In this document: positions 1,745 to 49,550 of the stretch, piece after piece | Layout: each line of letters starts with the position of its first letter | Position numbering within the stretch: the stretch's first letter is position 1 | Source of the DNA: Nitrospira sp. ND1 | GTDB lineage: Bacteria; Nitrospirota; Nitrospiria; Nitrospirales; Nitrospiraceae | Direction of reading: 5' to 3' | Length of the DNA stretch: 64,000 bases | NCBI RefSeq assembly: GCF_900170025.1 | Contig: NZ_FWEX01000006.1 | Span: 2,571,236-2,635,235 of the forward strand | The notes under the pieces: model-generated | Seen by the model: the letters and a program-made list of their open reading frames with translations, nothing else | Told to the model about the DNA's origin: nothing | The model's database searches: none | Position numbers and translations under genes: made by a program

Positions 1745-3034
1745 ATGGCAGTGGCATCGATCGATCTCTGTATCGTAGGCGCCGGAGCGGCCGGGTTGGC
1801 GGCCGGTATTTTTGCCGCCGAGCAGAACCCGCATCTGAGAATCGAATTGCTGGACGGGGCAAAGACTATCGGCGCCAAGATCCTGGTTTCCGGCGGCGGC
1901 CGCTGCAATGTCACCCATGATGTGGTGACGCCGGATGATTTTTTCGGCACCCGCCATCTGGTTCGCAATGTGCTCGCCGCCTTTCCGGTGGAGGAAACGG
2001 TCCGGTGGTTTGCTTCGCTCGGTGTGGACCTCAAGTGCGAGGAGACCGGTAAACTGTTTCCGGTGACCGACAAGGCGCGGACCGTGTTGGAGGCGCTCCT
2101 CGCTCGCAGCCGGGCGCTCGGGATAGTCCTTCGTTCCGGTCATCGAGTCACCGATATTGTCCGCCTTGACGGCACAGAAGTCGCAGGCAAGCCGGAGCCT
2201 GCCCGGTTCGTGATTCGACACCGAGAAGGCGAGACCGTTGCGAGGCGCGTCATCCTGGCCACCGGCGGGCGGTCGCTGCCACGTACGGGGAGCGATGGAT
2301 CGGGCTACGGACTCGCGCGACGCCTGGGCCACCAGGTGACGCCGACTGTCCCGGGACTGGTGGCCCTGGTCCTCGACGACCGCTGTTTTCACAAGGGACT
2401 GTCCGGGCTTTCACAGGAAGTCGAGATTCAGACTTTGGTACAGGGGAGACCCGTCGATCGCCGGATCGGCAGCTTACTCTGGACGCATTTCGGGATCAGC
2501 GGCCCGGTGGTGATGGATGCCAGTCGCTTCTGGTGTTTGGCCCGGGAACAGGGGGAGGCGGTCGAACTCTACGGAAACTTCTTGCCCGGGCGCACGACGG
2601 AACAGGCGCGTGAATGGTTTCTGGCACAGGCTGCTCAGTATCCTCGGCGGTCGTTGCTAAAGCTGTTGATGGAGGTCTTGCCAGAGCGATGCGCCGAGGC
2701 CCTCTGTCGTCATGCGGAGGGCGCCCCGCAACAGGCCTGTGCCCAGGTGTCACGCAACATTCGTGATCGTCTCCTGTCGGCTCTCACCCGGTTTCGGTTT
2801 CCTGTCCTGCGCGATCGAGGGTGGAACTTTGCCGAGGTGACGGCCGGGGGGATTCCGCTCGAAGAGGTCAACTTCCGCACGATGGAGTCAAAGGTGGTCC
2901 CCGGCCTGTATTTGGTCGGGGAGGTGCTCGATTGCGACGGGCGGATCGGCGGGTTCAATTTTCAGTGGGCCTGGGCGACCGGACGGCTGGCCGGTCGAGC
3001 GGCAGCCGTGAATCCTAGCCCGCATTATTCGTGA
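1745..3034 (+). CDS. BaiN/HI0933-family FAD-dependent oxidoreductase
   Basis: A 429-residue flavoprotein of the YhiN/HI0933/BaiN family. The N-terminal dinucleotide motif is GAGAAG (residues 12-17), followed by the family signature SGGGRCNVT (49-57). Near the C-terminus are TAGGIPLEEVN and the diagnostic GGFNFQWAWATG loop that closes over FAD. I chose the ATG after AGGGGG; an in-frame ATG four codons upstream is the alternative. Substrates of this family are mostly unknown, and the bile-acid reaction of BaiN should not be assumed. The last codons (PSPHYS then TGA) lie inside the left terminal repeat of a dispersed element, so the tail appears to be element-derived. Confidence 0.88.
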   Translation: MAVASIDLCIVGAGAAGLAAGIFAAEQNPHLRIELLDGAKTIGAKILVSGGGRCNVTHDVVTPDDFFGTRHLVRNVLAAFPVEETVRWFASLGVDLKCEETGKLFPVTDKARTVLEALLARSRALGIVLRSGHRVTDIVRLDGTEVAGKPEPARFVIRHREGETVARRVILATGGRSLPRTGSDGSGYGLARRLGHQVTPTVPGLVALVLDDRCFHKGLSGLSQEVEIQTLVQGRPVDRRIGSLLWTHFGISGPVVMDASRFWCLAREQGEAVELYGNFLPGRTTEQAREWFLAQAAQYPRRSLLKLLMEVLPERCAEALCRHAEGAPQQACAQVSRNIRDRLLSALTRFRFPVLRDRGWNFAEVTAGGIPLEEVNFRTMESKVVPGLYLVGEVLDCDGRIGGFNFQWAWATGRLAGRAAAVNPSPHYS

Positions 3035-3210
3035 GCACTTCTGCTGCAATCGCCGATTCACTGCTGCGACGAGCCTTCGACCGGCGGGCTCGCCCCTCGG
3101 CCCCTCAACGTACTGCATGAGTACGCCTTGGGTCCTCCCGGCTACGCGCGCCGGTCTCGCAACGTGACTCGGCGATTTCGCGACGAACCGTCATGAATAA
3201 TGCGGGCTAG
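3015..3210. repeat. CTAG-bounded inverted-repeat element (196 bp)
   Basis: The ends are 20-bp terminal inverted repeats, CTAGCCCGCATTATTCGTGA on the left and the complement of CTAGCCCGCATTATTCATGA on the right, with one mismatch. The interior is GC-rich and carries a small hairpin, ACGTACTGCATGAGTACG. The left repeat encodes the last residues and the stop codon of the upstream flavoprotein gene. There is no open frame large enough for a transposase, so it resembles a non-autonomous MITE-like element. A similar element with related ends lies at 7846-8018. Confidence 0.75.
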
Positions 3211-5719: not shown

Positions 5720-5791
5720 AGCGGGCTGCGGAAAAACTCGATTGCTACGCGATGCGAGAACGCCGCTGGCGGACTGTTTCCGCATCCTGCT
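5720..5791. repeat. Compact inverted-repeat element (72 bp), GCAGGC-type family
   Basis: The right end (GGCGGACTGTTTCCGCATCC) and left end (GGGCTGCGGAAAAACTCG) are imperfect inverted repeats. The segment GAGAACGCCGCTGGCGGACT is the complement of the block found in the copies at 44966 and 49427. The copy lacks the central CGTAC hairpin, so it is an internally deleted relative. It fills most of the gap upstream of the 4457-5701 lipoprotein gene. Confidence 0.7.
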
Positions 5792-5810
5792 ATGGCCTGA
5801 GCCCCTGCGC

Positions 5811-7845: not shown

Positions 7846-8018
7846 CCCGGACTATTCATGAATGCCTGCTGCGTCGTCCGATCCTCTCGCCCGGCGGAGC
7901 TGTTCTCGTTCGCCCTCCTCGACGGACTGCACGTACGCCTGCGTCGGCCTCGCGTGGGAGCAGCCCCGGCGGGCTTCGGTCTCGCACGCCTCGCGACGGC
8001 ATTCATGAGTAGTCCGGG
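7846..8018. repeat. Inverted-repeat element (about 173 bp), second CTAG-type copy
   Basis: Terminal inverted repeats CCCGGACTATTCATGAATGCC (left, last base dropped here: CCCGGACTATTCATGAATGC) and its complement with one mismatch (right, 7998-8018) bound a GC-rich interior. The right side continues into GGGCTAA, and the ends resemble those of the element at 3015-3210 (CCCGnAnTATTCATGA). The interior shares the CTCCTCGACGGACTGCACGT block with relatives. It accounts for most of the 312-bp gene-free stretch between the HAD gene and the 801-aa gene. Confidence 0.7.
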
Positions 8019-8044
8019 CTAACGAATCGCCTCACCGCTGCTGT

Positions 8045-20415: not shown

Positions 20416-20541
20416 GCAGGCTGCTGAAAACGGCCTCCCGCGTCGTTCTCGGCTCGTCAAAATCCTCGACGTACCCCTGCGGGTACGCCTCCGGTTTTGA
20501 CTCGCCTGCGGCCTAGCGGGACGTCGTTTTGAGCAGCCTGC
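20416..20541. repeat. Inverted-repeat element (126 bp), GCAGGC-type family
   Basis: The ends GCAGGCTGCTGAAAACGGCC and GACGTCGTTTTGAGCAGCCTGC (complement begins GCAGGCTGCTCAAAACGAC) form an imperfect terminal repeat. The centre has the hairpin CGTACCCCTGCGGGTACG. The block GCGTCGTTCTCGGC plus the hairpin region is shared with the CTAG-type element at 27989-28177. It lies 79 bp upstream of the FKBP start codon. Confidence 0.75.
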
Positions 20542-27988: not shown

Positions 27989-28177
27989 CTAGGAGCCTGT
28001 CCGGCATTGACCGTTCGACTGCGGCAAACGATCCACGATCATTTGCGTCGTTCTCGGCCTGAAAAAATCCTCAACGTATTTCAGCGAATACGCTTCCGGT
28101 TTTTCCAGGCCTGCGGCCTCGCATCTGGTCGCGCCTTCTTCGCCTCGCTACGAAGGCCATGTCGGACAGGCTCCTAG
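27989..28177. repeat. CTAG-bounded inverted-repeat element (189 bp)
   Basis: Terminal repeats CTAGGAGCCTGTCCGGCAT and the complement of CTAGGAGCCTGTCCGACAT differ by one base. The interior holds GCGTCGTTCTCGGC and an ACGTATTTCAGCGAATACG hairpin, both shared with the 20416-20541 element. It sits between convergent genes: it starts 2 bp after the symporter stop, and its right-hand CTAG contains the kinase stop codon. No coding capacity. Confidence 0.78.
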
Positions 28178-44965: not shown

Positions 44966-45090
44966 GCAGGCTGTTGAGAAAGTCCGCCAGCGGCGTTCTC
45001 GCATCGCGCCGAGGCTCACCGTACGGCACGAGTACGATTCGCCTCTTCGCTTGCTGCGGCCTTGCTGGACGGCCTTTCTGAACAGCCTGC
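44966..45090. repeat. Inverted-repeat element (125 bp), GCAGGC-type family
   Basis: The ends GCAGGCTGTTGAGAAAGTCC and the complement GCAGGCTGTTCAGAAAGGCC are near-perfect inverted repeats. The centre has CGTACGGCACGAGTACG. It is about 90% alike over its length to the copy at 49427-49550 by eye. It lies 14 bp upstream of the SDR start codon. Confidence 0.82.
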
Positions 45091-49426: not shown

Positions 49427-49550
49427 CAGGCTGTTGAAAAAGTCCGCCAGCGGCGTTCTCGCACCGCACAGCGGCTCACCGTACGGCACGAGTACGATTC
49501 GCCGTTTCGCTCGCTGCGGCCTTGCTGGGCGGCCTTTTGGAACGGCCTGT
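49427..49550. repeat. Inverted-repeat element (124 bp), GCAGGC-type family
   Basis: The ends ACAGGCTGTTGAAAAAGTCC and the complement ACAGGCCGTTCCAAAAGGCC are inverted repeats. The centre has CGTACGGCACGAGTACG. It is 17 bp upstream of the lysine aminomutase start codon and fills much of the 309-bp gap there. Bases 49551-49718 hold nothing further that I can name. Confidence 0.82.

What the first reader, a model, noticed from the sequence alone, without database searches (positions are those of the whole stretch)
20416..20541. Two element types share one internal hairpin and GCGTCGTTCTCGGC block
The start-proximal 20416 element and the CTAG-type 27989 element have different ends but a common interior (TCCTCnACGTA hairpin, CTTCCGG or CCTCCGG, GGCCTGCGGCC). 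Weaker traces of the hairpin are in the elements at 3015 and 7846. This looks like a family with exchangeable termini, possibly moved by different transposases.
Basis: seen in the sequence. Interest (0 to 1): 0.6.

Follow-up and report, generated by a model that had tools for sequence, protein, structure and literature searches.

The report
Hairpin core shared by different mini-transposons
Nitrospira genomes carry about a hundred copies of one small structured DNA hairpin that sits inside short non-coding transposons with different ends, ends that match two different kinds of transposase, and at the one site we could follow the hairpin is better conserved than the genes beside it.

Summary
A 75-78 nt interior is shared by the 20416 element (type A) and the CTAG-type 27989 element (type B). 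B copies score 40-60 bits against an A-only profile; the best of 6600 palindrome-preserving shuffles scored 9.5. Two more window copies (44991, 49451) and the 3015 element (type C) carry it; for the 7846 element (type D) homology is not shown. The window's genome holds about 100 copies, as do many relatives in the genus Nitrospira.

These are MITE-like non-autonomous elements. A-type ends match an IS5-family insertion sequence in N. defluvii. B-type ends match two broken IS1182-like insertion sequences in this genome. Intact copies of all types are flanked by 4-bp YTAR repeats. On a tree of interiors, B is one clade nested in A, so one exchange of ends is visible; repeated exchange is not shown. 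The 124-nt A hairpin is only part of a ~200-bp mobile unit.

The interior behaves like a structured element: invariant internal loops between covarying stems. At the window locus, 12 orthologous A hairpins differ by 4.9% in the interior, against 15-16% in neighbouring genes and 28% in adjacent spacer. Its function is unknown; I favour a structure-dependent role that makes insertions tolerable or useful.

The parts
20416..20541 (+). Type A hairpin element (GCAGGCTGCTGAAAA ... TTTTGAGCAGCCTGC); old copy without recognisable tail or YTAR repeat
20441..20515 (+). Shared interior in type A (GTTCTCG loop, TCCTCGACGTAC...GTACGCCTCCGG hairpin, CTGCGGCC)
   Evidence: R1 89.4 bits; conserved in 12 orthologues
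27989..28177 (+). Type B element with flanking CTAG at 27989-27992 and 28174-28177; unit 27993-28173
28046..28120 (+). Shared interior in type B
   Evidence: R1 81.1 bits; A-only profile 40-60 bits for the 8 B copies
44967..45089 (+). Type E hairpin element (A-type ends); interior at 44991-45063
49427..49549 (+). Type E hairpin element (A-type ends); interior at 49451-49523
5744..5792 (-). Fragment of a type E element (one arm plus GAGAACG block)
   Evidence: inverted match to 44965 and 49424; sequence printed
3015..3210 (+). Type C element, CTAG at 3015-3018 and 3207-3210; weak copy of the shared interior at 3082-3151
7846..8022 (+). Type D element (CCCGGACTATTCATGA ends, CTAA at 8019-8022); homology of its interior to A/B not shown

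Best explanation
The elements are non-autonomous miniature transposons (MITE-like) of Nitrospira built around one conserved structured core. SHOWN by sequence: the core is a ~75-nt imperfect hairpin with fixed internal loops and covarying stems; it occurs with A/E ends that match an IS5-family insertion sequence and with B ends that match IS1182-like ones; intact copies of all types have 4-bp YTAR repeats at both ends; B interiors form one clade inside A, which reads as one switch of ends. INFERRED: IS5 and IS1182 transposases acting in trans cut at the short shared ends (about 15-25 bp) and insert at YTAR, often at stop codons; the core does not set the choice of transposase, since it stays constant while the ends change. 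It is kept because its folded form (cruciform DNA or RNA hairpin) makes copies tolerable or useful at gene boundaries, which would also explain its conservation after insertion. The last step is a proposal, not shown.
For: Homology of interiors. Copy number: 100 matches at E<=0.001 in the own genome; all 29 genus genomes have a match, 33-126 in 28 of them. YTAR repeats on both sides, including non-palindromic CTAA..CTAA and TTAG..TTAG in C, and the 197-201 bp A/E unit with YTAR at the right end: 19 of 162 copies at <=4 mismatches, none in the shuffled control (one of the 19 lies at 321 bp and is probably chance). IS5 partner: L347 971-2294, TTAG-flanked, transposase NF033581 279 bits against cut-off 140. 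B partners L158 and L161: best hit NF033551 (IS1182) for each piece, below its full-length cut-off because both are broken; the two B subtypes resemble the two IS by their ends. Covariation: 91% of cells paired, score 0.399 against at most 0.107 for slid structures and 0.126 for shuffles. Conservation at the window locus: 4.9% interior, 9-10% arms, 15-16% genes, 27.9% downstream spacer among 12 orthologues found through their flanks. One exchange A to B.
Against: No movement was seen. The IS5 partner was found in N. defluvii, not in the window's own genome, and the own-genome B partners are broken. Element and IS share only about 15-27 terminal bp, so assignment rests on short ends plus the target repeat. 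Alignment A2 was fitted to the model, which leans pair counts towards the structure. The conservation test covers one locus, and the 12 orthologues were chosen as carrying the A allele; other species carry other hairpin alleles or none there. Matched arms could also arise by template switching or copying between elements. No partner was found for C and D.
Confidence: 0.75

Rival explanations
1. Plain MITE family with no function for the core. A and B share an interior by descent, and matched arms and low divergence come from copying between copies and from template-switch correction of imperfect palindromes.
For: About 100 copies per genome give ample templates; alleles at the window locus change between species and one genome has three hairpins in a row; palindrome correction needs no selection.
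Against: The internal loops stay unmatched and nearly invariant although correction should remove them. The A-allele orthologues mostly keep the same inner stem while other loci vary in it.
Confidence: 0.3
2. The core is a transcribed RNA element acting on mRNA 3' or 5' ends (stability, read-through), with one functional strand.
For: Bottom-strand RNA folds more stably in 101 of 110 copies; mismatches in stems favour G-U on that strand 70 to 35; many copies start at a stop codon.
Against: No clear orientation bias: co-directional gene pairs around A/E copies split 13 to 14. Two near-fixed or common T-G pairs favour the other strand. No run of T follows the 20416 hairpin on either strand. No Rfam family matches. 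No expression data.
Confidence: 0.2
3. REP-type elements moved by a RAYT tyrosine transposase.
For: Palindromic, intergenic, high copy number; a CTAG or TTAG often precedes the hairpin.
Against: Only one Y1 transposase found in the genome, with no A/E, B, C or D end near it; elements are 124-200 bp; target repeats on both ends of full copies.
Confidence: 0.03
4. The A/B likeness is convergence of GC-rich palindromes.
For: D-type elements look similar by eye without clear homology.
Against: 40-60 bits against at most 9.5 for pairing-preserving shuffles; B nests inside A with support 99.
Confidence: 0.01

Closest known systems
MITEs of IS5-family elements
   Same: No coding capacity, about 200 bp, terminal inverted repeats of about 15 bp equal to those of a full IS5-family element in N. 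defluvii, 4-bp YTAR target repeat
   Different: Interior is a conserved covarying hairpin that also occurs with other ends; the match to the IS does not extend inward, so it is not a simple internal deletion of that IS
MITEs of IS1182-family elements
   Same: B ends match two IS1182-like elements of the same genome over about 20-27 bp, CTAG on both sides
   Different: Interior is shared with elements carrying IS5-type ends
REP/REPIN elements and the GTAG/CGTC palindrome superfamilies (PMC3733652)
   Same: High-copy intergenic palindromes with a tetranucleotide at one side
   Different: REPs are 20-40 bp and GTAG types go with RAYT genes; these are far longer, with two-sided target repeats and DDE-transposase ends
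ERIC-like enterobacterial repeat units such as the 127-bp RU-1 (PMC2759123)
   Same: Similar length, intergenic, MITE-like
   Different: No sequence relation tested or claimed; resemblance only

Membership tests
MITE (non-autonomous DDE-transposon derivative) | Terminal inverted repeats | tested here: met
MITE (non-autonomous DDE-transposon derivative) | Target-site duplication of fixed length | tested here: met
   YTAR on both sides in B, C, D and in full-length A/E copies; not visible at the old 20416 copy
MITE (non-autonomous DDE-transposon derivative) | Ends shared with an autonomous element | tested here: met
   A/E with IS5-family L347; B with IS1182-like L158 and L161. Not found for C and D
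MITE (non-autonomous DDE-transposon derivative) | Movement by that transposase in trans | not testable with these tools
   needs a transposition assay
REP/RAYT | 20-40 bp palindrome linked to a RAYT gene | tested here: not met
   124-200 bp; one Y1 transposase found in the genome, without nearby element ends
Known structured RNA family (Rfam 15) | Match to a covariance model | tested here: not met
   no match at E<=1 apart from one tRNA elsewhere in L298
Simple internal-deletion derivative of the IS found | Homology to the IS beyond the terminal repeats | tested here: not met
   only the terminal ~15-27 bp match significantly

The most novel reading that the evidence does not exclude
A structured nucleic-acid module (the hairpin core, sometimes with a second inserted G-rich module) is itself the unit under selection: it is carried by mini-transposons of different transposase families, can acquire new ends, and is kept by hosts at gene boundaries for a structural function.
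Probability: 0.3. Interest if true: 0.78.

Novelty: new variant of a known kind. Interest (0 to 1): 0.58.

Why it matters
MITEs are normally defined by their ends, with an interior of little consequence. Here the interior is the constant part and the ends differ between transposase families. That makes it testable whether miniature transposons can carry a selected structured core, and gives a genus-wide natural series, with filled, empty and replaced sites, in which to measure it. No description was found in the open-access papers searched; most subscription papers could not be checked.

Tried and rejected
REP/RAYT reading rejected. Known RNA families: none. One-sided YTAR next to A hairpins first suggested single-strand transposition without duplication; reading further downstream showed a ~75-nt tail and a second end with YTAR in full copies, so this was dropped. 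The idea that the IS carries the hairpin was dropped: no R1 match lies within the own-genome B partners. A strand-specific RNA role is left as a rival because orientation shows no clear bias. Orthologue comparisons are biased, since many use each genome's best-scoring copies; only the flank-based set was used for the conservation claim. Conservation of G-tracts 3 and 4 in the second module is not evidence, because the search pattern demanded them.

Full report
CHECK. Window 20440-20517 and 28045-28122 match over 78 nt at 78% without gaps. Searches of the own genome give 45 matches to the 20416 element and 22 to the 27989 element, with the interior alone linking the two sets; C, D and E classes give 31, 49 and 44 matches (fragments and repeat hits included). 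A profile built only from A-type interiors scores B copies at 40-60 bits and E copies at 19-50; 6600 shuffles that keep pairing and base content score at most 9.5. C is positive in 6 of 15 copies and D at best marginal. The covariance model finds five places in the window, with the D element at E about 1. So the shared interior is real for A, B, E and part of C.

SPREAD. R1 has 100 matches at E<=0.001 in the own genome and matches in all 29 held genus genomes, 33-126 in each but one, which has a single match. A pattern scan of named genomes returned mostly Nitrospira and other Nitrospirota, plus records labelled Rokubacteriota and Methylomirabilota; in three of these the core sits between unrelated arms. 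They are metagenome bins, so mis-binning is possible.

ENDS AND TRANSPOSASES. B, C and D copies are often flanked by YTAR on both sides, including non-palindromic CTAA..CTAA (L032) and TTAG..TTAG (L043), which shows duplication and not just a longer palindrome. A/E hairpins at first showed YTAR only on the left. Full copies are 197-201 bp: YTAR, CAGGATGCKGAAAAA, hairpin, about 75 nt of tail, TTTTTCCGCAGCCTG, YTAR; 19 of 162 copies have such a right end within 4 mismatches and the shuffled control has none. A complete 1.3-kb element in G001 (its contig length equals that of the N. defluvii chromosome) has the same ends, TTAG on both sides and an IS5-family transposase. B ends match L158 1522-3148 and L161 1605-3166, whose broken transposases are closest to IS1182. 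The own-genome IS5 element L157 has other ends. Beyond 15-27 bp the elements do not resemble their IS.

HISTORY. On a tree of 121 interiors B is one clade (99) inside A, C one clade (97), the three non-Nitrospirota copies one (94). With 75 columns most forks are unresolved, and the root is unknown, but one A-to-B change of ends is the simplest reading.

STRUCTURE. Over 123 distinct sequences, 91% of cells pair; 327 cells have both sides changed against 108 in shuffles; covariation score 0.399 against at most 0.107 when partners are slid. The GTTCTCG, CTCAACGTAC/GTACGCYTC and CTGCGGCC stretches hardly vary. Bottom-strand RNA is more stable in most copies and mismatches lean 70 to 35 to that strand, but the sequences are related, so the sign test overstates this, and gene orientation shows no clear preference.

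THE WINDOW LOCUS ACROSS THE GENUS. Searching with flanking DNA gave the same site in 27 of the 28 relatives. Eleven carry the same A allele as the window; others carry hairpins of the same family with a different interior, or degenerate or partial ones; four have a short spacer with no hairpin; one (L376) has three hairpins in a row including part of an A allele. So the site was filled once or more and then turned over. Among the 12 A alleles mean pairwise difference is 4.9% in the interior, 9-10% in the arms, 11.8% on the promoter side, 15-16% in the two flanking genes and 27.9% in the downstream spacer, with compensated changes at 20418/20539, 20422/20535 and 20431/20526. The flanking genes encode an FKBP-type isomerase and a glutathione S-transferase-like protein, both on the minus strand. 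Choosing the A allele favours likeness of the interior, since the allele was recognised by it; this is the main weakness of the test.

POSITION. Of 35 A/E copies with both flanking genes called, none lies between two divergent genes (home-made gene caller). YTAR sites of elements coincide with in-frame stop codons in about 27 of 56 copies, against 6 of 43 non-genic YTAR sites in the window (the 56 is my estimate from tested ends, so the P of 0.0005 is rough). Selection against insertions elsewhere would give the same picture.

SECOND MODULE. Forty copies of a ~50-nt G-rich insert (stem-loop plus GGGGTTGGGCGGGTRAGAA) were found by pattern in fetched loci, in the apical loop of the core or at its junction with the arms, and sometimes apparently alone. 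The layout could form a G-quadruplex with a hairpin in one loop; 31 of 40 have four suitable G-tracts, but the pattern itself required most of them. It was not found in the window.

CONCLUSION. Ordinary in kind (MITE-like elements with IS-matching ends) and unusual in build: the core is constant and the ends are not. Function is unproven.

Noticed in passing
L386, L387, L388, L390, L394, L397 and others (own genome); L192, L218, L289 (relatives): A ~50-nt G-rich module (stem-loop plus GGGGTTGGGCGGGTRAGAA) inserted in the apical loop or at arm junctions of the hairpins, possibly a quadruplex with a duplex loop.
   Followed up: partly
L376 (G027) at the orthologue of window 20416: Three hairpins in tandem, two of one allele around part of the window's allele, suggesting local duplication and loss.
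   Followed up: partly
L383 (G004): One genus member has a single R1 match, no A/E end pattern and an empty site at this locus, so it may have lost or never gained the family.
   Followed up: no
L398 (C5:860700-861300): Three core copies in tandem at about 131-nt spacing in the own genome.
   Followed up: no
window 7846-8022 and its ~40 relatives: D-type elements with YTAR repeats are a separate abundant family with no partner IS found and no shown homology to the shared core.
   Followed up: partly
L164 (G000:C5:725832-726155): The only Y1 (RAYT-like) transposase found in the genome has none of these element ends nearby.
   Followed up: partly
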